Origin: Roseinatronobacter domitianus | GTDB lineage: Bacteria; Pseudomonadota; Alphaproteobacteria; Rhodobacterales; Rhodobacteraceae | Length of the DNA: 64,000 nt | Assembly (NCBI RefSeq): GCF_023336755.1 | Contig: NZ_JALZWP010000004.1 | Span: 62,001 to 126,000 of the forward strand | Direction of reading: 5' to 3' | Shown: piece after piece, positions 6,286-19,882 of the stretch | Numbering within the stretch: position 1 is the stretch's first letter | Layout: every line of letters starts with the position of its first letter | Notes under the pieces: model-generated | What the model saw: the letters and a program-made list of their open reading frames with translations, nothing else | Databases searched by the model: none | What the model was told of the DNA's origin: nothing | Position numbers and translations under genes: made by a program

Positions 6286-7125
6286 CTAGGACTGCCTGAA
6301 TGCCCACTCAGCGCCAGCGGTGGAATGCCAGTTCTCAGAACGGTGACGGGCGGCTTCGGTCAGCGTGCAGTTGAACAGAATATCCGACCCAATGTCGCAG
6401 ACCTGCGTTTCAGGGCGGGGCGCATCGGCAAGGCTGCCGATCTGCGTGATCCGGTTAAACCCTTGCGGTCCACCACCGATCAGCAACGGGGCCACCGCGA
6501 CATGCAGGTGCGACAGCAGCCCCGCCTCAAAAAAGCGCGACACCGTAATCCCCCCACCCTCGACCAGAATATTGTGCAGGCCAAGCTCGTGCAGGCCAGC
6601 AAGAATCTGGCGCGGCGCAAGCGTGCCATCTGTCAGGCTGGGCAGGCGCACCACTTCTACGCCAGCGGGGCGGTCGCGCGCCACGGTTTGCACCACAATC
6701 CTGCGGGTGCCATCATCGCGCAGCGCCGGAGCATCGTCGGTCAGGCGACCACGCGGGTCAATGATAACCCGCGCCGGGTTCTGACCCGCACACAACCGCA
6801 CGGTCAGGCGGGGGGTATCATGAAGCGCTGTGCGCACTCCAATGACCACGGCATCTGCAATTGCGCGCAGCCGATGCAAATGGCGCAACCCATCCGGCCC
6901 GGAAATATCGCGCGCGTCGCCGGACGCGGTGGCCACACGCCCATCCAGCGATTGGCCGATCTGCCCGATCGCCATCGGCCCCATATCGCGCCGCGCCAAC
7001 GGGGCGTAGATGTTCAGCGCCGACCGCTCGCCCGCTGTCCAGTCACCGCAACAGGGGCAGCCCTGCCCCGCGCGAATGTCGAGAATACGCTGCCAGACTC
7101 GCGGCGTGACATCGGCCTTATCCAT
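6286..7125 (-). CDS. Stand-alone RibD C-terminal (reductase) domain protein
   Basis: 279 residues matching the reductase half of RibD, which reduces a ribosylamino-pyrimidine with NADPH. Visible are MGPMAIGQIGQSLDGRVAT, the NILVEGGGITVSRF motif and VAPLLIGGG. The deaminase domain of bifunctional RibD is absent; instead the first 35 residues carry a CPCC motif. The start at 7125 is fixed by GGAAAGGAG directly upstream and gives an 8-base overlap with the methyltransferase gene. The true ribH-ribB genes are about 19 kb away. With a PTPS-like protein in the same operon, this enzyme probably reduces a different pyrimidine or pterin substrate; that is inference. Confidence 0.82.
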   Translation of the reverse strand: MDKADVTPRVWQRILDIRAGQGCPCCGDWTAGERSALNIYAPLARRDMGPMAIGQIGQSLDGRVATASGDARDISGPDGLRHLHRLRAIADAVVIGVRTALHDTPRLTVRLCAGQNPARVIIDPRGRLTDDAPALRDDGTRRIVVQTVARDRPAGVEVVRLPSLTDGTLAPRQILAGLHELGLHNILVEGGGITVSRFFEAGLLSHLHVAVAPLLIGGGPQGFNRITQIGSLADAPRPETQVCDIGSDILFNCTLTEAARHRSENWHSTAGAEWAFRQS

Positions 7126-7891
7126 GCGCTCTCCTTTCCGGTGGCACAGCCAGCAAATCCTTGTGCCCGATCCGCACTTCAGCATGATCCAGCGCCGCAC
7201 GCCGCGTGGCCAGCCAAAGCTCTGTTCCGTTGTGCCCGGCGCGCGCGGCAGCCGTGGCAATACCATCCAGCAATTCCGCCTGAAGGGTCTGATCGGTCGG
7301 CCCAAGACGCCACGGACTATCGGCCAGTTCAACCGTGTAGCCGGCGTTCCTGAACAGCGTGGCAGCCCGCGTGGCACTTTCTGCCCCCAGCGCGGGACCG
7401 AACCCTTTGTCGCTGCGCTGATCGGCATTGAACGCGCGTGTCACGGCCGCATCTTCGTCATGTTCTGGGGTCCACGACATTTCCCCATCATAGCTGAGCG
7501 CAGCGTAAAACGGTAGCCCGGCCCGGACCAGCCGCGCCACCAACCCTTCAAGCCATGCCTCTGACACAAGGTCCAGCAGCGCCGAGGCGGTGACAAGCGT
7601 CGCGCCGTCAAGCGGCAGCGCATCCAGTTCGGTCAGGTCAGCCTGAACCCCTGTCACCCGCCCCCCAAGGCGCGGGGCCAGCGCCAGCAAGCCGGGGTCA
7701 TTGTCGACCAATGTCCAGCGCATGCCTGTCGGCACCACGTCAGACATTGCCCGCACGGTCGCGCCGGTGCCTGCGCCCAGATCGACGATCCGTTCCCCTG
7801 CACGTGCCCCGGCCATTGCCAGCAAGCGCGCGTCGCGCGCAGCGCGGTCGGCAGGCGCGCGCAGGCTCAACCAATCGGGCGCAAATCCCAT
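7118..7891 (-). CDS. Class I SAM-dependent methyltransferase
   Basis: 257 residues with the SAM-binding motif VDLGAGTGATVRAM (about 36-49) and an acidic end of strand 2 (WTLVDNDPGL). It has no DNA or rRNA methyltransferase signature, so a small-molecule substrate is likely. It lies 3 bp after the PTPS-like gene and overlaps the reductase gene by 8 bases, so it is the third member of a four-gene operon. Substrate is unknown; the operon suggests a pterin or pyrimidine intermediate. Confidence 0.78.
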   Translation of the reverse strand: MGFAPDWLSLRAPADRAARDARLLAMAGARAGERIVDLGAGTGATVRAMSDVVPTGMRWTLVDNDPGLLALAPRLGGRVTGVQADLTELDALPLDGATLVTASALLDLVSEAWLEGLVARLVRAGLPFYAALSYDGEMSWTPEHDEDAAVTRAFNADQRSDKGFGPALGAESATRAATLFRNAGYTVELADSPWRLGPTDQTLQAELLDGIATAAARAGHNGTELWLATRRAALDHAEVRIGHKDLLAVPPERRAHG

Positions 7892-7894
7892 TGG

Positions 7895-8290
7895 CTACAC
7901 CTGCCCTTCATACCAAGCGCGGGCCATGTGGCTTTCATGCAGCAGAATGCGCAGCTTTTTCACCCGGCCATCGTCTTTCAGATCACCCGCCGCAATCCGC
8001 GCTTTCATGGTATCGAAGATATGCTTGCACAGGAATTCGGTGGTGGTGAATTTGCCTTCAAATTCAGGCACCTCGTCTAGGTTCTTGTAGCGCAGCGGGG
8101 CCAGCGTATCGGCCAGGGCCTCTGTCGCAAGGCCGATATCCACGACCAAGCCATGCGCGTCGATATCCTCGGTGTAAAAGGCGGCATCGACGGTAAAGGT
8201 GGCCCCGTGCATACCCTGCGCCGGTCCGAAAACCGGTGATGGCAGCGAATGGGCGACCATGATGTGATCGCGAACTTCGACAGCGAACAT
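7895..8290 (-). CDS. 6-pyruvoyl/6-carboxy-tetrahydropterin synthase fold protein, active site degenerate
   Basis: 131 residues with the length and layout of the PTPS/QueD family. The start at 8290 has AAAGGAC upstream and gives MFAVEVRDHI. Canonical members bind zinc through one early histidine and an HGH pair. Here H14 and H28 remain but the second histidine of HGH is alanine (MHGATF). The catalytic cysteine upstream of HGH is missing (FGPAQGMHG). The catalytic Asp-His of the LDHxxLN motif is replaced (LRYKNLDEV). The glutamate of the PTAEN motif may survive in TTTEF. It is therefore unlikely to carry out the QueD or PTPS reaction unchanged. It is operonic with a dehydrogenase, a methyltransferase and a RibD-type reductase. 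Confidence 0.75.
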   Translation of the reverse strand: MFAVEVRDHIMVAHSLPSPVFGPAQGMHGATFTVDAAFYTEDIDAHGLVVDIGLATEALADTLAPLRYKNLDEVPEFEGKFTTTEFLCKHIFDTMKARIAAGDLKDDGRVKKLRILLHESHMARAWYEGQV

Positions 8291-8309
8291 GATATGTCCT
8301 TTCAAAGGG

Positions 8310-9281
8310 TCAGGTGTAACGGATGCGGTGGCACAGCGTGGCCGGGTCCGCAAGAATGGTCGCGTAGTCACGCGGCATATCGGCGAAATCGCTTTCGCCA
8401 GAGATCAGCACATCCAAGCGTGGGTCGGTCAACATACCCAGCGCCTTGGCCAGACGGCGGCGATAATCCCAGCGCGGCAGACGCTCTGGCGGCAAGGCGC
8501 CAACCTGCGAACTTATCAGCCGCAAACGCTGGCTGTGGAACCGCCCGCCCAAAGGCAAGGCAACGGGCGTGGTGCCGTGCCAGCTGGCCTCTACCACGGT
8601 GGCGCCCGGCCCGGCATGCTCCAGCGCAAGCGCCAGACCGGCAGCGGATGCCGAAGCATTCACAATAACGTCATAGTCGCCGGAGAGCCCGTCGGGGGCC
8701 GCAAAATCGCATCCCAGACGCGCGGCCAAAGCACCGCGCGCCGGGTCCAGATCGCAGAGCGTGACCTCTGTTCCCGGCATTGCAGCGGCCAGATATCCGA
8801 CCAATGCCCCGACAACCCCCGCGCCGACAACCGCCACGCGGTCGCCTGCGGAAACGGCACTGTCCCAGACCACGTTCAGCGCGGTTTCCATATTGGCGGC
8901 CAGAACCGCGCGCGCGGGCGGCACACCCGGCGGCAGCGGAATGGGGGTGTCGGGGGGCAAGCGAAACATGTCCTGATGCGGGTAAAGGGCAAAGACCATT
9001 TCCCCGACATTTGGCCCTTCTGCACGCTCTGCAACGGCACAATAACCGTATTTCACGGGAAAGCTGAACGCGCCTTCCTGAAAGGGCGCACGCATGTTGT
9101 CCTGTTCACGGGTCGGCACGTTGCCCGACAGCACCAACCGCTCCGTTCCGCGGCTGATGGCGCTGTAGCGCATCTGCAAAAGTTCGCCCGACCCGATATC
9201 TGCGGGCAACAGGCGTGCCTCTCCGGGCGCGCATATCCAGAGGGCGCGGGGGGTCACGGTGTCTTGCGTCTTATGCGGCAT
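8310..9281 (-). CDS. Zinc-type alcohol dehydrogenase-like (MDR) oxidoreductase
   Basis: Medium-chain dehydrogenase fold, 323 residues. The N-terminal part contains YSAISRGTERLVLSG, and the Rossmann motif VAVVGAGVVGALVGYLAAA (about residues 144-162) is followed by CDLD, which favours NAD(H). No catalytic-zinc cysteine cluster is evident. The start at 9281 was chosen because the longer open frame to 9356 adds a residue run unlike the family. First gene of the operon that continues with the PTPS-like gene 19 bp downstream. Substrate unknown. Confidence 0.75.
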   Translation of the reverse strand: MPHKTQDTVTPRALWICAPGEARLLPADIGSGELLQMRYSAISRGTERLVLSGNVPTREQDNMRAPFQEGAFSFPVKYGYCAVAERAEGPNVGEMVFALYPHQDMFRLPPDTPIPLPPGVPPARAVLAANMETALNVVWDSAVSAGDRVAVVGAGVVGALVGYLAAAMPGTEVTLCDLDPARGALAARLGCDFAAPDGLSGDYDVIVNASASAAGLALALEHAGPGATVVEASWHGTTPVALPLGGRFHSQRLRLISSQVGALPPERLPRWDYRRRLAKALGMLTDPRLDVLISGESDFADMPRDYATILADPATLCHRIRYT

Positions 9282-9423
9282 GGCGATCTCTTGTTTCGTT
9301 GCAGAAGGTAGCGCATGACCCTGCCCTGCCAAGGCAAGAGGGCGCGCAAAAAACAACGGTATGTTGGCTGGACATATGCGCGGCTGACCTAGTTAACCCA
9401 TATATTGCAGAAGGAAACGCGTT

Positions 9424-10165: not shown

Positions 10166-10960
10166 TTAGGCGGCGCGCAGCACCTGCGCAAATTGCGCAA
10201 AAACAGAGGGCGTTGCCGTTAGCACCGTGCCGCTGATTTCTGGTGGCAAACCGGGGGTCAGCCCGTTCACCTCTGCCCCTGCCTCGCGCAGCAGGACCAG
10301 CCCGGCGGCAATGTCCCAAGGCTGCAAGCGGCGCTCCCAGAACCCGTCCAGCCGACCGCAGGCCACATAAGCAAGGTCCAGCGCCGCAGCCCCCATACGC
10401 CTTACCCCGGCACAATGCGGGGCAAGTCGGGCGATATCGGCAGCGTGGTCGTCGATATGATCCATGCTGCCAAAGGGAATGCCGGTGCCAAACAGCGCGG
10501 CGCTCAGGCTATCCGTATCTGCCACGCGCATCGGTGCACCATTCAGCCACGCGCCCTGACCTTTGACCGCCGCAAAGATTTCGTCGCGCAGCGGGTCATA
10601 GATAACCCCAAGCGTTCGACTGCCCTTCACCTCCAGCGCGATCGACACCGCCCAATGCCCTATGCCGCGCAAATAATTGGTCGTGCCATCCAGCGGGTCC
10701 ACGATCCAGACATTGGACGCGTCCTGCGGCGGCGTGCCGGTTTCCTCACCCAGCCAATGATCCTGCGGCCCGCAAAGACGCGCACGCAACAGCGCCTCGG
10801 CGCGCAAGTCGGCCTCGGAGACGAAATCTCCGGCCCGCTTCGAACGTGGTGCAAGCCTCTCTTGCCCCTGCCGCAGTTTGACCAACACTCCACCGGCCTC
10901 GCGGGCGGCGGCAATGGCTGTGTCAAGCGCAGGGTGCTTGGGAAAGGCGGCTGCGGTCAT
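10166..10960 (-). CDS. Inositol monophosphatase family protein
   Basis: 264-residue Mg-dependent phosphatase. The metal-binding motifs are GEETGT (about 78), IVDPLDGTTNYLRG (about 93-106) and PWDIAAG (about 212). Family members hydrolyse inositol phosphates, sugar phosphates, 3'-phosphoadenosine phosphates or histidinol phosphate, and the sequence does not decide. The start at 10960 overlaps the stop of the UPF0104 gene as ATGA. It is the last gene of a four-gene operon with a CDP-alcohol phosphatidyltransferase, so a phosphoalcohol or sugar-phosphate substrate fits. Confidence 0.85.
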   Translation of the reverse strand: MTAAAFPKHPALDTAIAAAREAGGVLVKLRQGQERLAPRSKRAGDFVSEADLRAEALLRARLCGPQDHWLGEETGTPPQDASNVWIVDPLDGTTNYLRGIGHWAVSIALEVKGSRTLGVIYDPLRDEIFAAVKGQGAWLNGAPMRVADTDSLSAALFGTGIPFGSMDHIDDHAADIARLAPHCAGVRRMGAAALDLAYVACGRLDGFWERRLQPWDIAAGLVLLREAGAEVNGLTPGLPPEISGTVLTATPSVFAQFAQVLRAA

Positions 10961-11835
10961 GGCTGCACCCGATCGCGCCGCGCGCCCATCAGGCGCAGCG
11001 CCAGAGGCACAAGGCCGCTCAGGGCCGCGACAATGGCGGACAGACCGAATGCGACACTTGCCGCCACAGCTTCTGTCGCGGTTACACCGACGAGCGGCCA
11101 CACTCCGGCAGCCAGCCCTTCGCGCACCCCCCAGCCATTGACTGTCAGGGGCACCAGCATGGCCAGCAAGGTCAGCGGAATGACGAAAAGCGCATCCACA
11201 GGGTCAAGCACCACGCCGACCGCCCGCGCCGCGGCCCAAACGCCCAGCAGGTTACAGGCCAGCACCGCCGCGCTTAGCCCGACTTGCACCGTCATCTGCG
11301 CGCCCCATGCCCGATAGGCCAGCGCACGCCAGCGCCGGGGCGTGAACCGCACCAGCATGACAGAACATGCCGCGCTGCCAAAGCCGATGGCCAGGCCCAC
11401 GGGCATGCCATGACGCACGCCAAGCCACCAGCACAGCCCCGCAAGCCCGGCCAGCAGCAGGGCGATCTGCCCGGCCAGCCGTTCCAGAACCACTGATGCT
11501 GCCGCAGGCCGCCAACCGCCCATCGCCCCACGCGCCCGCGCGGCACGGCCAAGATCGCCCAGCACGCCGCCCGGCAACAGCGTGTTGCCCAAAACCGACA
11601 GGTGGTATTCGGCCACGGCCCAACCAAGCGGGACGGGCGTTCCCAGCGCCTGCGCCGTCACCTGCCACCGCAGCGCCGACAGCCATATCTGCAAGACAAG
11701 CAGCAGCCCGGCCAGCGCGATCCACCCGATCTGGGCGGTGGCCAGCCGTTCCAGCAACAGCGTTGGGCCAGCCAGCCAGATAACCGCTGTCAGCACAGCG
11801 AGCGTGGCAATCATACGCCAGAGCCATGCTCTCAT
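10957..11835 (-). CDS. UPF0104 / lysylphosphatidylglycerol synthase transmembrane-type protein
   Basis: Integral membrane protein of 292 residues with about eight hydrophobic helices. It belongs to the UPF0104 group, which includes the membrane half of MprF and AglD-like proteins. LGNTLLPGGVLGDLGRAARA and LTVNGWGVREGLAAGVW are typical conserved loops. No cytoplasmic aminoacyl-transferase domain is attached, so it is not a complete MprF. Such stand-alone proteins are often found with glycosyltransferases and may act as flippases. Coupled by ATGA overlaps to both neighbours. Confidence 0.78.
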   Translation of the reverse strand: MRAWLWRMIATLAVLTAVIWLAGPTLLLERLATAQIGWIALAGLLLVLQIWLSALRWQVTAQALGTPVPLGWAVAEYHLSVLGNTLLPGGVLGDLGRAARARGAMGGWRPAAASVVLERLAGQIALLLAGLAGLCWWLGVRHGMPVGLAIGFGSAACSVMLVRFTPRRWRALAYRAWGAQMTVQVGLSAAVLACNLLGVWAAARAVGVVLDPVDALFVIPLTLLAMLVPLTVNGWGVREGLAAGVWPLVGVTATEAVAASVAFGLSAIVAALSGLVPLALRLMGARRDRVQP

Positions 11836-13439
11836 GGGGCTGCATCCGTGCTCAGGCGAGTCAGCAGCAGGTCGCGCAGCGCGTCCATTGCCAAGCTGGG
11901 CGTGGCCGGATCGGGCAACATGCCTTGGACCCAGCCCAACCCGTCGAACAGTGCCAGCAAATCGGGCGGGCCAATGACATGCAAGGGCACGTCAAACCCG
12001 TCCACGCCGGACACAAAGCGCGCCGGTTCATGATCGCCCATGACCACGATCAGGGGCGCTGTATCACCCTGTCGCGCGGCCCAGTCCCCAACCGTTTCAA
12101 GGCTGTAGTCGGTGGCCTGCCGGAACTGGTCGCGCACCCGGTCATGATCGCGCCAGACCACCTCTGGCGGGTCGCCCGACAAGGCCCATGGGTCAAAGAT
12201 GCGCCCGTCGCCAAGTGCATCCCACGGCAAAAGCTGCGGCACCGGCACCCAAGGCGCATGGGACGACACAAGCGCGATCTGCGCGACCAGCGGCGCACGG
12301 TCCGGGCGTGATTGCTCCAGCCGCTCGAATGCGGTCAGTGTAAACTGATCCGGCATCGTCACCCAGTTGAACGGTTGCCCCCGATAGCCCAGATCATCGG
12401 CGTTATAGATCGCATCGAACCCGAAATAGCGTCCTTCCGGCCACGGCAGCACATGCGCCGGCATGATTGCCACGGTGCGGCGCCCGGCCTGCGCGGCAAA
12501 GTGAAACAAGGTGCGGCGCGGGCTGGCCAAAAGCGCGCGGTAGCGCGATTGCGTGTCCAGCCACAGGCCCGACGCGACGGACCCATGCGTCAGCCAGCTT
12601 TGCCCGCCCACCATGGGCGCGCGCGCCCAGCCAGAGCGGATGGCCAACCCGGCTTGGCCGATCTTGGCTTCGGCGCGGCGCAGGGTCGCGCGATGGGTCG
12701 GGGCATAGAGCGGGTTCTCATGGCTGGAACGGCCGTAACTCTCGACAAAAATCAGGACCATGTCGCGCGTGCCAAGGCGTTCTAGGCCTGGCTCAATCTG
12801 CACCATCGGATCGTTTTGCGAGGCGGTCACAAAACGCGCAAGATCGCGCCGCGCGACAATGGCGTGCTCGACACGTTCCAGACCGACCCGCGCGGTAAAG
12901 GCGGCACCCGGCGGGCGCAGCTCTTGGGGCAAGGTCCATGCGCCGCGCGCGGCGCCGATCTCTGCGACAGCAACAATAGCGGTCACGGGCACCAGGGCAC
13001 CGGCCAGCACGCGCGCAGGCTTGGGCATTTGCACGCGGGCCAGCACACCCGTCGCCCACCACAACAGCCAGCCCAGCGCGCCCAGGCCCAGCACAATCGC
13101 CACAAGAGCCAGCCATGACAGAAAACCCCCAAGGCTGCCTTGGGCCAACATCCATGCGGCAGGCAGCAGGTGGTAATCGACCACCAGATTGAAGCCCCTG
13201 TTGAACGCCGTAAAGGTCGCAAAATCGGCCAGTTTCAGCACCGCGATTGTCCAGATCGCGGCAACCAACAGGATGCGCAGCGCAATCCCTGCCCTACCCG
13301 GACCAAAGGCCAGTAGCGCCGCCACGATCACCGGTAATTCCAAAGGGAAAACCGCCAAAGCGCCCCATGTCATCGCTTGCGGATGGTTGGGCTGGATCAG
13401 AACCAAAAACAGGATGGCCAGGGCGGCAACGCGTGTCAT
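11832..13439 (-). CDS. Membrane-anchored alkaline-phosphatase/sulfatase superfamily protein (OpgB/LTA synthase-like)
   Basis: 535 residues: roughly the first 180 contain four or five membrane helices, the rest is a periplasmic alkaline phosphatase-superfamily domain. Features are MVLIFVESYGRSSHENPLYA after the membrane part, a candidate nucleophile Thr or Ser in GGQSWLTHGSVAS, and the metal motif VMGDHEP near residue 455. This arrangement is that of phosphoglycerol or phosphoethanolamine transferases (OpgB, OpgE, LtaS, EptA). An OpgH and an OpgG/OpgD homologue lie in the divergent operon, so decoration of a periplasmic glucan with a phospho-substituent is likely. Donor and product are inferred. 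Confidence 0.75.
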   Translation of the reverse strand: MTRVAALAILFLVLIQPNHPQAMTWGALAVFPLELPVIVAALLAFGPGRAGIALRILLVAAIWTIAVLKLADFATFTAFNRGFNLVVDYHLLPAAWMLAQGSLGGFLSWLALVAIVLGLGALGWLLWWATGVLARVQMPKPARVLAGALVPVTAIVAVAEIGAARGAWTLPQELRPPGAAFTARVGLERVEHAIVARRDLARFVTASQNDPMVQIEPGLERLGTRDMVLIFVESYGRSSHENPLYAPTHRATLRRAEAKIGQAGLAIRSGWARAPMVGGQSWLTHGSVASGLWLDTQSRYRALLASPRRTLFHFAAQAGRRTVAIMPAHVLPWPEGRYFGFDAIYNADDLGYRGQPFNWVTMPDQFTLTAFERLEQSRPDRAPLVAQIALVSSHAPWVPVPQLLPWDALGDGRIFDPWALSGDPPEVVWRDHDRVRDQFRQATDYSLETVGDWAARQGDTAPLIVVMGDHEPARFVSGVDGFDVPLHVIGPPDLLALFDGLGWVQGMLPDPATPSLAMDALRDLLLTRLSTDAAP

Positions 13440-14200
13440 CCCGGCGCATCCGCCTGCGCGCGAAGTGCCCGGATGTCATACAGGAACGAGGCCAGCACGA
13501 CACACAAGATCGTCAAGCCCACGCCCTGCGCCAAAGCGCCTTCCAGCATTGGCATAAGCAGACAGACCTGCCCCCCCATCTGAACCCCGGCCACCACGCG
13601 GCGGCGCTGCGAGGGGCCCAATGGGGCGTGCATCCACGGCCAGATATGCCCGGCCAACAGGAATGCCGGGCGCATCAGGCCCAACACCAGAAACCACGGG
13701 CCGACCTTGCCCAATGCAACCGCCAGCGCCGCCATCACAAGCGCAAAGGCCACATCGGTTTCCACATCCAGCCGCGCCCCGAAGCGCGATGAAAGCCCGG
13801 CGCGGCGCGCGGCCCATCCGTCGACCCCGTCAAGTGCAAGGACACAGGCCGCCAGTCCGGCCAGCAGGTATCCCAGCACGGTCAGCGTTTCGGGGACAAT
13901 CAGCAACCCGGCCAGCGCCGCAATCGCCGCGCCGCGCAGCAGCGTGACGATATTGCACAAACCCAGGCGAGAATGCGGGTAGGACAGCCGCCGCAAGCCG
14001 TGCAGCGCCAACCCGCCCGCAAGCACCATCATAAAGCCCGCCAGCAACGCCGCCGCCATGGCGTGTTCTGCACCGGCATGGCTGGCAAGCCCGAAGGCGC
14101 CGACACCGGCAAGCGGCAAGCTTGCGCCAACCACAACCCACGCCTGCCGCATGGCTTGCGGGGCAACGGGCGGTGCTAATGGTGTGTCGCTGTGCATCAT
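13436..14200 (-). CDS. CDP-alcohol phosphatidyltransferase
   Basis: Inner-membrane enzyme of 254 residues with about six helices. The full catalytic signature D-x2-DG-x2-AR-x8-G-x3-D-x3-D is present in the stretch starting DGVDGWAARR and ending LDVETD (about residues 122-147). Family members transfer a phosphoalcohol from a CDP-linked donor to an alcohol acceptor. The start at 14200 is the first of two adjacent ATGs behind TTGGGGAC. First gene of the minus-strand operon, overlapping the sulfatase-fold gene as ATGA. Its product may be the lipid or phosphoalcohol donor for that enzyme; the specific alcohol cannot be read. Confidence 0.85.
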   Translation of the reverse strand: MMHSDTPLAPPVAPQAMRQAWVVVGASLPLAGVGAFGLASHAGAEHAMAAALLAGFMMVLAGGLALHGLRRLSYPHSRLGLCNIVTLLRGAAIAALAGLLIVPETLTVLGYLLAGLAACVLALDGVDGWAARRAGLSSRFGARLDVETDVAFALVMAALAVALGKVGPWFLVLGLMRPAFLLAGHIWPWMHAPLGPSQRRRVVAGVQMGGQVCLLMPMLEGALAQGVGLTILCVVLASFLYDIRALRAQADAPG

Positions 14201-14341
14201 GTCCCCAAGAGTTAGCACGCCATCGCAAGGTTCAATCCCGATCTTGCGTGGTTTTTGCCTGCTCACGCGAGTTTGCTTTTACCGGGTGCGCTCTAACTTC
14301 TACCGTTAGCTGCGTCCAACCCGGCATTGCAAAGGGCATGT

Positions 14342-14905
14342 ATGACCTCTTCAACCACCAAACCGACCCGATATGCCGCCACAACCCGCGCCTTGCATTG
14401 GATCGTGGCGCTGATGGTGCTGGCCACCATTCCGGTCGGGGTTATCATGCTGCAAGACGGCCTGTCGCGCGATCTGCGCAACACGCTGTTCATCCTGCAT
14501 AAAAATGGTGGGGTCATTATATTGCTGCTGGTGGTCCTGCGGCTGGGTTGGCGCGCGCGCAACCCCGCGCCGCCCTTGCCCGACAGCGTGCCGCCGCTGC
14601 AAGCGCGCATCGCCCATCTGGCGCATGGCGCGCTTTATGCGCTGCTGCTGGTTATGGCACTCAGTGGGTATGTCCGCGTCCGTGCTGGGGGCTTTCCGGT
14701 TGAAATGCTCGATGCTATCGGAATGCCGGGCTTGGTGCCGCGCTCGGATTCCTTGGCGGAAACGGCGAAATGGGTTCACGCCACGGCGCGCTTTGCGCTG
14801 GTGGCGCTGATCCTGGCGCATATCGCGGCAGGGCTGAACCATCTGCGCAAACGGGATGGCGTTTTCGAGCGGATCTGGCCACCTTTCGGGCGTGGCCGGG
14901 TATGA
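14342..14905 (+). CDS. Cytochrome b561
   Basis: 187-residue inner-membrane cytochrome with four helices and haem-ligand histidines in RALHWIVAL, FILHKNGG, AHGALYALLL and LAHIAAGLNHL. Bacterial b561 proteins move electrons from quinol, some acting as superoxide:quinone oxidoreductases. The ATG at 14342 follows AAAGGG at suitable distance. Its stop overlaps the ATG of the opgH-like gene. Why an electron-transfer protein is coupled to glucan synthesis is not apparent. Confidence 0.88.
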   Translation: MTSSTTKPTRYAATTRALHWIVALMVLATIPVGVIMLQDGLSRDLRNTLFILHKNGGVIILLLVVLRLGWRARNPAPPLPDSVPPLQARIAHLAHGALYALLLVMALSGYVRVRAGGFPVEMLDAIGMPGLVPRSDSLAETAKWVHATARFALVALILAHIAAGLNHLRKRDGVFERIWPPFGRGRV

Positions 14906-17316
14906 GCCGCACCTTCTGGCCGGTTGCCATTGCGTTGGCCCTCGCCTCTGGCCTGTCTGCACTGTTCTGGACGGGAATCGACCATCCCACCACAGCGCCC
15001 GCGCTGGCCGCAGCGGTGCTGGTCCTGTTCTCTGTCAACGCGCTTGCGCTTGCTGCGGCGGCGGTGACAGCCGTTATGGGCGTGCCTCGACCTGCCGCGC
15101 CGACAGGGCATAGCGCCATCCCAAGGGACCGCTGCGCTATTCTTTGGCTGATATGCGGCGAACCCCCAGAGCCTTTGGCAGTGCGCGCCAGAGAATTGGT
15201 AAAAGCCTTGAAAGACCGCCCCGAAGGCGCGAACACGCAGGTTTTCATCCTGTCAGACACGACCGATGCCGACGCAGTCGCCAACGAGCAGGCGCTATTC
15301 GCCGCATTACCGGGCGTTATCTACCGCAACCGCACTGCGCCCGACGGTCGCAAACCGGGCAATCTGCGCAACTGGCTGGAGCATTACGGCGCAGAGTTCG
15401 ACACGATGCTGGTGCTGGACGCCGATAGCAGCTTTACCGCCGAGCGCTTGGCCCAGATGCGCCAGACCATGGCGCAAGAGCCGCGCTTGGCGCTGCTGCA
15501 AGCCGGTATCGCGCTGCGCCCCGGTTCCAGCCGACTTGCGCGGTTGCAACGTCTGTCGGTGCGGATGACGGGACCGGTCTTTACCAGCGGGCTGGCACGG
15601 CTCAGCGGAGCCTGCGGCAATTATTGGGGGCATAACGCGCTGCTGAGGGTAGAGGCCTTTCGCGCTGTGGCCGACCTGCCCGCCTTGCCGGGACGTCCCC
15701 CATTCGGCGGGCCGATCCTGAGCCATGACTTCATCGAAGCCGCCTATCTGCGTGCCGCTGGCTGGGACTTGCGCATCTGCCCCGCCATGCTTGGCAGTGC
15801 CGAAGATGCGCCGACGACCACAGCCGCCTATACCCGTCGCGACCGCCGCTGGGCGCAAGGCAACCTGCAACATCTGCGATTGATCGGCGCGCGGGGGCTG
15901 CATCCGGGAAGTCGCCTGCATCTGTTGGCCGGAATTCAATCCTACATCTCTGCCCCGATCTGGCTGGCTTTGGTGCTGTTGCTTGGGTCCGGCGCGGTCC
16001 ATGCACGGCCCGAGGCCTGGGTCGCATTGGCCGCAACGCTCACTGTGTTGCTGGTGCCAAAACTGGCCGGGCTGGCGCGGTTGCGCCGCCAGATCGCGCG
16101 CCGCCCCGGCCCGGTGTTGCGGGGCTTTGGGGCAGAACTGGTGCTTTCCACCGTCATCGCCCCCATCTGGATGCTGCGGCGCGCCGGTCATGTGCTGTCG
16201 GTGCTGGCCGGGCGCGATGGCGGTTGGCAACCCTCTGGGGCGGCACTTGCGCCCAGTGGCAAGGCCGGTCGCGGCGCGCAAATTGCAGGGCTGGCAATTC
16301 TGCTCGCGGTGATCTTTCCGCAAGCGCTGCTGGCATCTGCCGCCAGTGCGGTCTTGTCGGCGGCGATGGTGCTGCCCGTGGTAGGACCGCTGCTTGCCGC
16401 GCCATGGCTTCTGGCGTGGCTCGATGATCTGGCACGACCCAACCATGTCGCAGCCTATTACGATGCCAGCACGAAGCGCTTTCTGGCCGTGGGTGGCAGC
16501 GGCGGGGCGCTGGCCATTCATCGCCCGCTTTGGGCAGATGGAGTGGGCACCTCGGAACAGGCTGCGGCCCATGTCAACACGCTGATCGCCGAGGCCACAG
16601 AGCGGATGCTGGGGCACCCGCCGGAACACTTGTGCGACCTTGGCTGCGGCGTGGGCGGCACCGTGTTCCACCTGGCGCACCTGTGGCCAGAGGCGCGGTT
16701 CTCTGGCCTGACGCTAAGTGCGGAACAGGTGCGGCTGGCCCGAAGCCATGCCCGCGCACAGGGGCTGTCCGATCGCTGCCATTTCCTGCAAGCCGATTTC
16801 ACACTTCATGCCAGCCTGCACAAGGCAGAGGTGGCCATCGCCGTCGAAAGCCATGTCCACGCGCCCAGCGCAAAAGCCTTTTTAACCGCCGCGCTTGACC
16901 ATCTGGCGCCCGGTGGCGTGCTGGTGCTGGTTGACGATATGCTGGCCGAAGAGCGCACCTTGCCGCCCCGCCACGCGCGGCTGATCGACAGCTTTCGCAA
17001 GGGCTGGCGCTTGGGCCATGTCAGCGCGCGCGGTCAGATCGCCGCGCAAGCCGAAGCGCTGGGCTATGCCGTGCTTGCCGAGCGCGATCTGAGTGCATTT
17101 CTGCATTTGACACGCTGGCGGGACCGCGCCTTGCGCGTGGTCGGGCCGATGGCAGAGCGGTTCGGGCTGCACCATCGACCGCTTTTCGCCAATATGATCG
17201 GTGGCAATGCGCTGACCGAAGCCTATCGCCACGGGCTGATGCGCTACACGCTGCTGGTGCTGCGCGCCCCACACGCCGCGCGCCTGCCGGATGATCGTTC
17301 GGAAACTGCGGCATGA
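14902..17316 (+). CDS. OpgH-type glucan glucosyltransferase fused to a C-terminal SAM methyltransferase
   Basis: 804 residues. Two N-terminal helices are followed by a GT2 domain with LVLDADSS (about D173/D175), GGPILSHDFIEAAYLRAAGW and RRDRRWAQGNLQH (about 312-324), then further membrane helices to about 500. This matches OpgH/MdoH, which polymerises and exports the beta-1,2-linked backbone of osmoregulated periplasmic glucans from UDP-glucose. From about 550 to the end there is an unrelated class I methyltransferase with LCDLGCGVGG (about 577) and GLTLSAEQ, resembling cyclopropane-synthase/small-molecule types. E. coli OpgH has no such domain. The start overlaps the cytochrome stop (ATGA). 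The methylation target is unknown. Confidence 0.85.
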   Translation: MSRTFWPVAIALALASGLSALFWTGIDHPTTAPALAAAVLVLFSVNALALAAAAVTAVMGVPRPAAPTGHSAIPRDRCAILWLICGEPPEPLAVRARELVKALKDRPEGANTQVFILSDTTDADAVANEQALFAALPGVIYRNRTAPDGRKPGNLRNWLEHYGAEFDTMLVLDADSSFTAERLAQMRQTMAQEPRLALLQAGIALRPGSSRLARLQRLSVRMTGPVFTSGLARLSGACGNYWGHNALLRVEAFRAVADLPALPGRPPFGGPILSHDFIEAAYLRAAGWDLRICPAMLGSAEDAPTTTAAYTRRDRRWAQGNLQHLRLIGARGLHPGSRLHLLAGIQSYISAPIWLALVLLLGSGAVHARPEAWVALAATLTVLLVPKLAGLARLRRQIARRPGPVLRGFGAELVLSTVIAPIWMLRRAGHVLSVLAGRDGGWQPSGAALAPSGKAGRGAQIAGLAILLAVIFPQALLASAASAVLSAAMVLPVVGPLLAAPWLLAWLDDLARPNHVAAYYDASTKRFLAVGGSGGALAIHRPLWADGVGTSEQAAAHVNTLIAEATERMLGHPPEHLCDLGCGVGGTVFHLAHLWPEARFSGLTLSAEQVRLARSHARAQGLSDRCHFLQADFTLHASLHKAEVAIAVESHVHAPSAKAFLTAALDHLAPGGVLVLVDDMLAEERTLPPRHARLIDSFRKGWRLGHVSARGQIAAQAEALGYAVLAERDLSAFLHLTRWRDRALRVVGPMAERFGLHHRPLFANMIGGNALTEAYRHGLMRYTLLVLRAPHAARLPDDRSETAA

Positions 17317-18839
17317 AGCGGCGCGGCTTCCTCTGGGGGGGTGCAGCCTGCCTTGCGCTGCCCCCACATCTGGCCCTTGGACAGGGCCAAGACCCGGAAC
17401 GCAGCCTGATAGAGACCGCACGCAAGGCCGCGACGCGGCCCTACCGCCCTGACAGGACGCCCCTCTCCGCGCCCTTCGACGGGGCCAGCTATGACAGTTA
17501 TCGCGGCATTCGCACGCGACCGGGCCTGAGTGGCGATCTGGCGCTCGGACCCGAGTTTCGCGCCGATATGCTGCCGCAGGGCTGGTTGTTTCGCGAACCC
17601 GTGACGATAGACTTGCCGGGCCATGACACGCGTTTTTCGCCCTCGCTGTATGATTTTGACAACCGGTATTTCGGTGCGGATGCCGCTGGGCAAGATGCCG
17701 GCTCAATGGGCTTTTCCGGCCTGCGCCTGCGGCACCGGCTGAACGCGCCCGATACGTGGGACGACGTGCTGGTTCTGCAAGGCGCAAGCTATTTCCGCGC
17801 CCTGGCCAAAGATACCGTCTACGGGTTATCGGCCCGCGCTTTGTCGCTGGGAACAGGTGGCCCGACCCCGGAAGAATTTCCGCGCTTCACCCGGATCGTC
17901 GTATTCGGCACGCAAGACGGGCTGCGCTTTGGCTGCCTTGTGGACAGCCCGCGCGCCAGCGCCGCACTGATCGCCACGCTGCACCCCGGCCCGCGCACGG
18001 TGCTGGACTGCGCGTTGCATCTGTTCCCGCGCGTGCCGCTGGAGGATGTGGGAATCGCGCCGCTGACCTCTATGTTCCAGCACAATGACATCGGCCCGGC
18101 CCGGATAGATGATTTTCGCCCTGCGGTGCATGACAGCGATGTTCTGGTGGTCGATAATGGCGCGGGAGAACGGCTGTGGCGCCCGCTCGCGAACCCCGCC
18201 AACGTGCAAATGTCGGCCTTTGCGGATCGCGGCCCGCGCGGCTTCGGGCTGGTGCAAACCCCGACCGATTTCGCCCGGTTCCGCGATCAGGAAGGCGCCT
18301 ACCACCGCCGCCCTTCGGCTTGGGTTGCGCCCAAGGGCGATTGGGGCGCAGGCGCGGTCATGTTGCTGGAAATCCCCACCGAAAACGAATTCGCCGATAA
18401 TATCGTGGCCTTCTGGCGACCGCGTGACAGGCTGGAGCCCGGCGCGCATCGCTTCGACTACAGGCTGGACGTGACAGCCCCCGGCCCCGACCCTCTGCCG
18501 CCCCGGCCCGAACCCTTCTGGCCTGCCCGGTCGGCATCTGGGGTTGAGCCGAACACAGGCAACGCGCGGCTATTCGTCATAGACTTTCACACAAGCGGCC
18601 CCTTGCCTGATATGATCGGCGCAGATCTGGATATTGGTGCGTCGCAGGGCACGGTCAGCGGGCAAGCGCTTTACCCGTTGGAGGCGCGACCGGGCACATG
18701 GCGGGCCAGCTTCCTCTTCACGCCCAAGGCCGGGCAAGAGGTCGCGGAATTGCGCTTGCGCCTGCGCGGTCAGGATGGCACGCCGCTGGCTCCGGTCTGG
18801 CTGCATCGCTGGACCCGAACGGCGCAAGGAGGTGTCTGA
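17313..18839 (+). CDS. Periplasmic glucan biosynthesis protein, OpgG/OpgD family
   Basis: 508 residues with a Tat-type signal (MKRRGFLWGGAACLAL, cleavage near residue 23). Conserved MdoG-family stretches include VLVLQGASYFRALAKD, YGLSARALS, EEFPRFTRI, TSMFQHNDIGPA and PSAWVAPKGDWGAGAVMLLE. OpgG and OpgD act in the periplasm on the glucan backbone made by OpgH; a Tat signal is more typical of OpgD. The gene overlaps the opgH-like gene as ATGA. The preceding and following genes are all in the same coupled operon, so a joint role is strongly supported. Confidence 0.88.
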   Translation: MKRRGFLWGGAACLALPPHLALGQGQDPERSLIETARKAATRPYRPDRTPLSAPFDGASYDSYRGIRTRPGLSGDLALGPEFRADMLPQGWLFREPVTIDLPGHDTRFSPSLYDFDNRYFGADAAGQDAGSMGFSGLRLRHRLNAPDTWDDVLVLQGASYFRALAKDTVYGLSARALSLGTGGPTPEEFPRFTRIVVFGTQDGLRFGCLVDSPRASAALIATLHPGPRTVLDCALHLFPRVPLEDVGIAPLTSMFQHNDIGPARIDDFRPAVHDSDVLVVDNGAGERLWRPLANPANVQMSAFADRGPRGFGLVQTPTDFARFRDQEGAYHRRPSAWVAPKGDWGAGAVMLLEIPTENEFADNIVAFWRPRDRLEPGAHRFDYRLDVTAPGPDPLPPRPEPFWPARSASGVEPNTGNARLFVIDFHTSGPLPDMIGADLDIGASQGTVSGQALYPLEARPGTWRASFLFTPKAGQEVAELRLRLRGQDGTPLAPVWLHRWTRTAQGGV

Positions 18840-19882
18840 TGCAACTGGTTTTTGCCATTCCCGGCGACCTTGACGCACGCACGGGCGGCACGCTCTATGA
18901 TCGCAAGGTGGTCGATGCGTTGCGCCGCGCCGGGCATGATGTGACGCTGCTGGCCCTGCCGGGCGACTGGCCCGACCAAAGCCATGCGCAAGAAACCGAA
19001 GCCTTGGCGCGTCTGAACGCTTTGCCCGATAACTGCCCCGTCGTTATTGACGGGCTGGCCTATGGCGCGCTCTCTGCGGCGGTCATTCGCAATCCCTTGG
19101 TCGCGATGGTGCATCACCCGCTCGCGCTGGAACCGGGCCTGACACCGGACGCCGCCGCGCGGCTGCATGCGCGCGAACAGGCGAACTTGGCCAAAGCCGC
19201 ACAAGTCGTCGTGCCCTCGGCGCATGTGGGCGGACTGTTAAGCACACATTTCGACATGGACGCCGCGCGCGTCCATGTCGCGCATCCCGGTTTCGACGCG
19301 GCACACCCCGCGCCCGGAACCGTAACTGAGGGTCCGCCCCTTATCTTGTCGGTCGGGCTGGTCTGCCACCGCAAAGGCCATGATGTGCTGTTGCGCGCTT
19401 TGGGCGCAATCACCGATCTGGACTGGCGCGCGGTCATTGTCGGGCGGCTTCATGAACCCGGTCATGTCGCCGAGTTGCACAAACTGCATGACATACTTGG
19501 GCTTGCGGAACGGGTGACATTGGCCGGAGAATTGGACGCCGCGGAGCTGTCGGCACTTTATGCACAAGCCAGCCTGTTTGCGCTTGCCACACGCTATGAG
19601 GGCTACGGCATGGTCCTGTCCGAAGCGCAGCAACACGGCCTGCCAGTTATCTCTTGCGACACAGGCGCGGTGCCGGAAGCGTTGGACGGCAGCGGCCTGC
19701 TGGCCCCGCCCGATGACGCGCCCGCATTTGCCGCGCATCTGCGCGCGGTGCTGCGCGACGCGGACCTGCGCGCGCGCCTGCGCGCCCAAAGCCGGGCGCG
19801 CGCGGCCCGTCTGCCAACATGGGACGATGCGGCACGGGTCATGGCGCAGGCGGTGGCGGCTGCACAGCCTGTCCAGGGGTAA
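18839..19882 (+). CDS. Glycosyltransferase family 4 protein
   Basis: 347-residue GT-B enzyme. The C-terminal half shows LILSVGLVCHRKGHDVLLRA, and the EX7E motif is in EGYGMVLSEAQQHGLPVI (about 262-279). The start overlaps the previous stop (TGATG) and is preceded by AAGGAGG at 18826-18832, a very strong ribosome binding site. No membrane segment or signal peptide, so it acts in the cytoplasm on a nucleotide-sugar donor. Acceptor may be a lipid or the glucan. Its 3' end overlaps the convergent gene by 44 bases. Confidence 0.87.
   Translation: MQLVFAIPGDLDARTGGTLYDRKVVDALRRAGHDVTLLALPGDWPDQSHAQETEALARLNALPDNCPVVIDGLAYGALSAAVIRNPLVAMVHHPLALEPGLTPDAAARLHAREQANLAKAAQVVVPSAHVGGLLSTHFDMDAARVHVAHPGFDAAHPAPGTVTEGPPLILSVGLVCHRKGHDVLLRALGAITDLDWRAVIVGRLHEPGHVAELHKLHDILGLAERVTLAGELDAAELSALYAQASLFALATRYEGYGMVLSEAQQHGLPVISCDTGAVPEALDGSGLLAPPDDAPAFAAHLRAVLRDADLRARLRAQSRARAARLPTWDDAARVMAQAVAAAQPVQG

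What the first reader, a model, noticed from the sequence alone, without database searches (positions are those of the whole stretch)
14902..17316. OpgH glucosyltransferase fused to a SAM methyltransferase
One reading frame carries the full OpgH signature set followed by a class I methyltransferase of about 250 residues. Known decorations of osmoregulated periplasmic glucans are succinyl, acetyl, phosphoglycerol and similar groups; I do not know of methylation. The fusion suggests that methylation is tied to backbone synthesis or to the glucan primer.
Basis: partly seen in the sequence, partly recalled or inferred. Interest (0 to 1): 0.75.

Follow-up and report, generated by a model that had tools for sequence, protein, structure and literature searches.

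The report
Glucan synthase OpgH fused to methyltransferase
In one genus of Rhodobacteraceae-type bacteria the membrane enzyme thought to make periplasmic sugar chains has a methyltransferase built into its tail, which suggests that these chains, or something made beside them, may carry methyl groups.

Summary
The fusion is real. One 804-residue frame (14902-17316) holds a short OpgH glucosyltransferase (residues 1-506) and a complete class I SAM methyltransferase (about 515-800), overlapping opgG. It is no sequencing error: 20 of 36 genomes of the genus carry it full length without stops, and both halves are under purifying selection (dN/dS 0.08-0.21). Its history looks stepwise: relatives with opgH-opgG and no methyltransferase; one genome (G291) with opgH, a separate methyltransferase gene and opgG in a row; then one fusion. 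Closest solved enzymes are natural-product O-methyltransferases, among them two glucose O-methyltransferases. I think it methylates a glucose of the nascent glucan or primer at the cytoplasmic mouth of OpgH, possibly capping the chain as WbdD does; this is inferred. Main counter-evidence: in a distant alphaproteobacterial family, standalone homologues (12 of 12) sit near a dehydrogenase of the gene set that also flanks the window's fusion, and 10 of those 12 genomes show no OpgH. So the substrate could be another product of that set. My ten literature searches listed no such fusion and no methylated OPGs. A new variant of a known kind.

The parts
14902..16419 (+). OpgH (MdoH) GT2 glucosyltransferase part, residues 1-506; short form
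   Evidence: NF003962 413 bits over cut-off 328; PF13632; signature residues conserved in 21 fusions
16420..16443 (+). short junction between the last hydrophobic segment of OpgH and the methyltransferase
   Evidence: alignment of 21 junctions; DNA read
16444..17313 (+). class I SAM methyltransferase domain, about residues 515-804
   Evidence: Pfam, PDB hits, alignment A1
16636..16659 (+). SAM-binding motif DLGCGVGG (residues 579-586)
   Evidence: D66, G68, C69, G70, G72, G73 invariant in the 23 rows of A1
16846..16860 (+). ESHVH (649-653); its last His is invariant in A1 and aligns with a His of MitM, 5gm1 and 3bus, but with a Glu of 4pne
17313..18839 (+). opgG, overlapping the fusion stop codon; keeps an Asp (D362) aligned to E. 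coli OpgG D361
   Evidence: PF04349 431 bits; alignments to 1txk and 8ip2; number; D361/D388 from passages of PMC10514313
18839..19882 (+). GT4 glycosyltransferase downstream of opgG; in 16 of 20 fusion genomes and 0 of 11 genus genomes without OpgH/OpgG
14327..14905 (+). cytochrome b561 gene overlapping the opgH start (own start codon uncertain)
   Evidence: PF01292; upstream of opgH in fused and most MT-less loci
13436..14266 (-). CDP-alcohol phosphatidyltransferase, divergent from the operon (start uncertain)
   Evidence: PF01066; conserved neighbour
11832..13439 (-). membrane sulfatase/phosphotransferase-like protein (OpgB-like is my reading)
   Evidence: PF00884; no NCBIfam name
10957..11835 (-). 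LPG-synthase-TM / flippase-like membrane protein
   Evidence: PF03706
8310..9356 (-). zinc-type dehydrogenase of the neighbouring gene set (start uncertain)
   Evidence: weak PF00107, below its cut-off; conserved with PTPS, GT4 and MT in distant genomes
7895..8290 (-). 6-pyruvoyl tetrahydropterin synthase (PTPS) homologue
   Evidence: PF01242; QueD and 6PTHBS models below their cut-offs
7118..7891 (-). second class I methyltransferase of the neighbouring gene set
   Evidence: PF13649
6286..7125 (-). RibD C-terminal-domain reductase of the neighbouring gene set
   Evidence: PF01872

Best explanation
A genuine bifunctional membrane enzyme. The OpgH half is a short GT2 synthase that builds the beta-glucan of osmoregulated periplasmic glucans (OPGs) from UDP-glucose and passes it across the inner membrane to OpgG. 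The tail is an active SAM-dependent O-methyltransferase held on the cytoplasmic side, where SAM is, directly under the synthase. It most likely methylates a glucose hydroxyl of the nascent chain (its cytoplasm-facing non-reducing end) or of the primer; if the 2-OH of the end residue is the target, this would also cap a beta-1,2 chain and set its length. The gene arose when a separate methyltransferase gene came to lie between opgH and opgG and was later fused, once. Shown: the fusion, its conservation, purifying selection, the tree order, the family of each half, the overlap with an OpgG that keeps its catalytic-type Asp. Inferred: cytoplasmic placement, catalytic activity, the substrate and capping.
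For: Full length in 20 of 36 genus genomes and in G096 of another genus. OpgH tree of 62 rows: 11 MT-less relatives lie outside, G291 with an unfused opgH-mt-opgG row is sister (99/95) to the 21 fused rows (100/100). In G291 the opgH stop and the mt ATG are two bases apart. dN/dS of the MT 0.08-0.21 in 8 genome pairs, OpgH residues 1-506 0.11-0.18. Fusion genomes hold OpgG in 20 of 20, directly downstream in 18. PDB profile search with 23 MT sequences: MitM, then 6uv6 ('D-glucose O-methyltransferase', E 2.5e-26) and 3bus (E 3.3e-25; RebM, recalled) lead; the unfused G291 MT alone gives the same three; RebM is a sugar 4'-O-methyltransferase by the title of its paper (reference list seen). OpgG keeps the Asp. 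The MT begins soon after the last hydrophobic segment in 21 of 21 fusions. WbdD is a precedent of a methyltransferase tied to a polymerase that ends a glycan chain (PMC3482155, passages).
Against: In family f128, 12 of 12 genomes with a standalone MT homologue have it 0.8-3 kb from the dehydrogenase of a non-OPG gene set; 10 of these 12 show no OpgH match at E 1e-20, the other two have one on another contig. So the MT family does not need OpgH. With the window's own domain alone the solved relatives rank MitM, 5gm1, 4pne, and only then 3bus and 6uv6, and several of the close ones methylate non-sugars (recalled), so homology does not fix the substrate. The MT tree does not resolve whether G291 lies outside the fused rows. 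One genus member, G034, has OpgH-OpgG without the MT, so the MT is not indispensable. No chemistry. The unfused state rests on one genome of 450 contigs, 87% complete.
Confidence: 0.5

Rival explanations
1. The MT acts on another product of the neighbourhood (a glycolipid, phospho-headgroup or pterin-type glycoside made by the GT4, CDP-alcohol phosphatidyltransferase, sulfatase-like, PTPS and dehydrogenase genes) and is only carried by OpgH, or the OpgH product is itself one piece of that conjugate.
For: In f128, 12 of 12 genomes with the MT have it within 3 kb of the dehydrogenase gene. I looked at the surroundings of 8 of the 12 and saw three arrangements: beside a RibD_C reductase and a helicase gene (six), beside a GTP cyclohydrolase I gene (G557), and inside a CDP-OH-PT - MT - FkbM row with overlapping ends (G972). 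The same gene set flanks the fusion in the window and in R. ekhonensis. GT4 is in 16 of 20 fusion genomes and 0 of 11 without OpgH/OpgG. Of 13 loci fetched, ten hold an OpgH paralogue with no OpgG nearby, and eight of these ten have the dehydrogenase beside it.
Against: The dehydrogenase is missing from 9 of 20 fusion genomes, so that part of the set is dispensable for the fusion. opgG directly follows the MT in 18 of 20 genus fusions, in G096 and in G291. Two other standalone homologues whose surroundings I saw, in G362 and G076, have no such set nearby.
Confidence: 0.33
2. The tail is a SAM/SAH-binding regulatory domain that tunes OpgH, in the position where PilZ sits in cellulose synthase (recalled), and is no longer an enzyme.
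For: Position soon after the last hydrophobic segment.
Against: Key residues of the SAM motif, the His of ESxxH and the DD pair are invariant in the 23 rows of A1, which include the unfused G291 gene and one distant standalone homologue; the MT is at least as conserved as OpgH; separate MT genes exist.
Confidence: 0.08
3. Frameshift, chimeric assembly or misannotation joining two genes.
For: One genome (G291) has the two as separate genes.
Against: 20 genus assemblies and G096 show the same in-frame joint, including two assemblies of 6 contigs.
Confidence: 0.01

Closest known systems
OpgH/MdoH of E. coli and the opgGIH operon of Rhodobacter sphaeroides
   Same: GT2 synthase with the MdoH signatures, partnered with OpgG; R. 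sphaeroides opgI plus opgH complement an E. coli opgH deletion (PMC10514313, passages)
   Different: Gene order opgH-opgG, shorter protein, methyltransferase tail; mostly 35-43% identical to the usual OpgH of the family
RebM (3bus) and the D-glucose O-methyltransferase 6uv6 (AtmM, recalled), MitM
   Same: Among the closest solved relatives over much of the domain; ESxxH and the Asp after it align with 3bus
   Different: Distant in sequence; stand-alone enzymes acting on small natural products (recalled)
WbdD of E. coli O8/O9a (chain-terminating methyltransferase; PMC3482155, passages)
   Same: A methyltransferase physically tied to a glycan polymerase at the membrane
   Different: O9a WbdD also has a kinase and feeds an ABC exporter; no kinase domain was seen here; the product is unknown
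OpgB/OpgC/OpgE decoration enzymes (roles recalled)
   Same: Would be a modification of OPGs
   Different: Those add phosphoglycerol, succinyl or phosphoethanolamine from the periplasmic side; a SAM enzyme must act in the cytoplasm

Membership tests
OpgH/MdoH glucosyltransferase | Match to the curated MdoH model | tested here: met
   NF003962 413.3 bits, cut-off 328; the other eight MdoH models listed stay below their cut-offs
OpgH/MdoH glucosyltransferase | GT2 catalytic signatures (DxD, HDF, RRxRW; recalled as signatures) | tested here: met
   Positions, conserved in 21 fusions
OpgH/MdoH glucosyltransferase | Partner OpgG in the genome | tested here: met
   20 of 20 fusion genomes
OpgH/MdoH glucosyltransferase | Makes beta-1,2-glucan | not testable with these tools
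   Needs biochemistry
Class I SAM methyltransferase | Glycine-rich SAM motif and methyltransferase Pfam domains | tested here: met
Class I SAM methyltransferase | Methyl transfer activity | not testable with these tools
   Needs assay
RebM/AtmM-type sugar O-methyltransferase | Sequence relation over the whole domain | tested here: inconclusive
   Next after MitM in the profile search, but behind MitM, 5gm1 and 4pne in the single-sequence search
RebM/AtmM-type sugar O-methyltransferase | Catalytic His and Asp (roles recalled; the RebM paper is not held) | tested here: met
   His of ESxxH and Asp of VDDM align with ESLHH and ADF of 3bus, invariant in the 23 rows of A1
WbdD-type chain terminator | Methyltransferase tethered to the polymerase | tested here: met
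   Covalent fusion
WbdD-type chain terminator | Sequence homology to WbdD | tested here: inconclusive
   No WbdD among the 59 solved sequences matched by the domain at E 0.01 in a single-sequence search; the profile search showed only 60 of 84
WbdD-type chain terminator | Methylated non-reducing end and altered chain length | not testable with these tools
   Needs glucan analysis

The most novel reading that the evidence does not exclude
A polymerase with a built-in methyl cap: the fused methyltransferase ends beta-glucan chains by methylating the cytoplasm-facing end glucose, giving O-methylated OPGs of set length; and OpgH-type synthases are more widely part of a PTPS/GT4/phosphotransferase gene set that makes an unknown glycoconjugate.
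Probability: 0.25. Interest if true: 0.75.

Novelty: new variant of a known kind. Interest (0 to 1): 0.55.

Why it matters
How OPG synthesis is primed and stopped is, to my knowledge, unsettled. A synthase that carries its own methyltransferase gives a concrete, testable handle: methylation of the glucan would be an OPG decoration made in the cytoplasm instead of the periplasm, and capping would explain length control. Relatives without the domain, with it as a separate gene and with it fused form a natural comparison series. The repeated linkage of OpgH and of this methyltransferase family to the same unexplained gene set points to an unknown glycoconjugate pathway in alphaproteobacteria.

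Tried and rejected
Frameshift or assembly error: rejected by 20 of 36 genus genomes plus G096. OpgI of R. sphaeroides as a ready-made methyltransferase partner: the one passage I saw says that opgI and opgH complement an E. coli opgH deletion, which does not suggest a methyltransferase; I did not see the original paper. Dependence of the fusion on the PTPS/dehydrogenase set: not found (dehydrogenase in 11 of 20 fusion genomes against 2 of 11 without OpgH/OpgG, Fisher p 0.066), while GT4 did associate (16 of 20 against 0 of 11, p 1.6e-5; the genomes share ancestry, so these p values are too strong). In those counts G709 and G026 are classed as OpgH/OpgG-bearing from OpgG alone. Search for the MT across the phylum: 1 of 299 genomes at E 1e-25, the window's own; across the class 8 of 385, the window's own included, of which I read the surroundings of three others (G362, G455, G557). 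Literature: ten searches; in the listings shown (20 of 53 papers, 10 of 64) I saw no OpgH-methyltransferase fusion and no methylated OPGs; the library lacks most subscription journals. PMC10514313, PMC11842490, PMC3482155, PMC3158105 and PMC9558356 were seen as passages only. A predicted fold was planned but not possible.
Full report
What is there. The frame at 14902-17316 on the + strand codes for 804 residues without interruption. Residues 30-511 match the curated MdoH/OpgH model NF003962 above its cut-off (413 against 328 bits) and PF13632. Residues 572-732 match several methyltransferase domains above their cut-offs. The start codon overlaps the stop of a cytochrome b561 frame and the stop overlaps the ATG of opgG, so the order is cytb561 - opgH-MT - opgG - GT4 with overlapping ends. 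OpgG is a full MdoG protein (431 bits) and keeps the Asp that aligns with D361 of E. coli OpgG, the residue mutated in its substrate complex as D388 was in OpgD, where D388 is the general acid (PMC10514313, passages).

Is it an artefact? No. Of 36 genomes of the genus examined (the window's own included), 20 have the fusion full length with no stop inside; 4 have only contig-end pieces; 12 have no OpgH-level match. Named carriers are Roseibaca ekhonensis and Roseinatronobacter thiooxidans, 4 of 7 loci reach into the methyltransferase and 3 (Marivita, a Steroidobacter and a Verrucomicrobiota) match OpgH only. One genus member, G034, has OpgH running straight into OpgG without a methyltransferase. 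In the family (f1; Rhodobacteraceae by the named members) 4 of 295 genomes have the methyltransferase at E 1e-15: the window's own, G096 (fused), G291 (separate gene) and G076 (a 32% homologue in an unrelated place), whereas 144 of 295 have an OpgH at E 1e-25.

How it arose. The window's OpgH belongs to a distinct short-OpgH clade (100/100) with gene order opgH-opgG. In its tree (62 rows, midpoint root) 11 MT-less members lie outside, and G291 is sister (99/95) to all 21 fused rows (100/100). In G291 the opgH stop codon and the ATG of the methyltransferase gene are two bases apart and opgG follows; its contig begins inside opgH, so nothing upstream is seen. In the MT-less Marivita protein OpgH ends about where the methyltransferase begins in the fusion. 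So a methyltransferase gene probably came to lie between opgH and opgG and was later fused, once. This is the usual trail of two proteins that work together, though the middle step rests on one incomplete genome (450 contigs, 87% complete). The MT tree (32 rows) puts the fused rows together against the f128 homologues with full support, but does not resolve whether G291 lies outside or among them.

Is the tail an enzyme? The main SAM-motif residues, the His of ESxxH and the DD pair are invariant in 23 of 23 aligned homologues: 21 fused, the G291 gene and one distant standalone protein. Among 21 fusions 30% of MT positions are invariant against 25% in OpgH. dN/dS in eight genome pairs is 0.08-0.21 for the MT and 0.11-0.18 for OpgH residues 1-506. 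With a profile of the 23 sequences the best solved relatives are MitM, 6uv6 (deposited as D-glucose O-methyltransferase; AtmM, recalled) and 3bus (RebM, recalled), and the separate G291 protein alone gives the same three. With the window's domain alone the order is MitM, 5gm1, 4pne, then 3bus and 6uv6. RebM is a rebeccamycin sugar 4'-O-methyltransferase (title seen in a reference list). This favours an O-methyltransferase, perhaps for sugar hydroxyls, but does not settle it.

Where does it sit? Hydropathy averaged over 21 sequences shows two segments before the GT domain, two after it, a weak stretch around 413-427, and a final pair to about residue 498. The tail starts soon after. If the weak stretch does not cross, the number of crossings after the GT domain is even and the tail lies on the cytoplasmic side; that E. 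coli OpgH has a cytoplasmic C-terminus is recalled. A cytoplasmic methyltransferase could reach the primer, UDP-glucose or the growing non-reducing end, not the exported chain. In a beta-1,2 chain, methylation of the end 2-OH would stop growth; WbdD shows that bacteria use methylation by a polymerase-bound enzyme to end glycan chains (PMC3482155, passages).

The evidence on the other side. Standalone homologues of the MT were found in other alphaproteobacteria (8 of 385 class genomes at E 1e-25, the window's own included). In family f128, 12 of 23 genomes have it, and in all 12 it lies on the same contig 0.8-3 kb from a dehydrogenase homologous to the one at 8310-9356 of the window. In the 8 of 12 whose surroundings I fetched three arrangements occur: beside a RibD-type reductase and a helicase gene (hrpB by eye; six), beside a GTP cyclohydrolase I gene (G557), and inside a CDP-alcohol phosphatidyltransferase - MT - FkbM row with overlapping ends (G972). 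Most of the neighbours (sulfatase-like protein, CDP-alcohol phosphatidyltransferase, FkbM, a second methyltransferase, GT4, PTPS, dehydrogenase, RibD_C) are those that surround the fusion in the window. Of the 12 genomes, the 10 of genus g421 show no OpgH match at E 1e-20; G557 and G972 have one on another contig. So the MT family has a life without OpgH. Against this link, the homologues of G362 and G076 have no such set nearby, and most of the 12 share one inherited arrangement, so 12 of 12 is not twelve independent events.

How tight is the tie in the fusion genomes? Of the 20, OpgG is present in 20 (directly downstream in 18), GT4 in 16 and the dehydrogenase in 11; among the 11 genus genomes without OpgH/OpgG, GT4 is in 0 and the dehydrogenase in 2. 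The CDP-alcohol phosphatidyltransferase or sulfatase-like gene flanks the operon in 19 of 19 genus loci with enough sequence (L018 ends too early) and in G096, but it also flanks MT-less relatives. Further, of 13 Rhodobacteraceae loci fetched, ten (L097-L106) hold an OpgH paralogue with no OpgG nearby; eight of these have the dehydrogenase beside it and the other two a GT4, while the remaining three (L107-L109) have OpgG and none of the set. OpgH-type synthases and this set thus meet repeatedly.

Verdict. The most likely reading is a methyltransferase that acts on OpgH's product or primer (0.5), with a real chance that it acts on another product of the neighbourhood (about 0.33), and small chances for a regulatory tail or error.

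Noticed in passing
window 6286-9356 (-) with 18839-19882 (+): A conserved gene set that I could not name: RibD_C reductase, class I methyltransferase, PTPS homologue, dehydrogenase and GT4, recurring in distant alphaproteobacteria. It could make a glycosylated pterin-like compound; that is a guess from the domains.
   Followed up: partly
window 10957-14266 (-): Flippase-like protein, sulfatase-like membrane phosphotransferase and CDP-alcohol phosphatidyltransferase next to opgH-opgG in most loci of this OpgH clade. Together they could make, flip and transfer a phospho-alcohol onto the glucan, in the manner of OpgB (inference).
   Followed up: partly
L097-L106: A second OpgH type (open frames 633-690 aa) with no OpgG nearby, beside the dehydrogenase/PTPS/GT4 set in 8 of 10 loci; L102 holds two copies.
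   Followed up: partly
L042:3188-6552 and about L035:336-3700: An ABC transporter (permease, ATPase, substrate-binding protein that by eye resembles the NMT1/THI5 kind) between opgG and GT4 in L042 and beyond the flippase-like gene in L035; not checked with a domain search.
   Followed up: no
   Followed up: no
L075 and L024 (G034): One genus member has an MT-less OpgH, 37% identical over the end piece and about 51% over another contig's piece, directly before OpgG: replacement, contamination or loss cannot be told apart.
   Followed up: no
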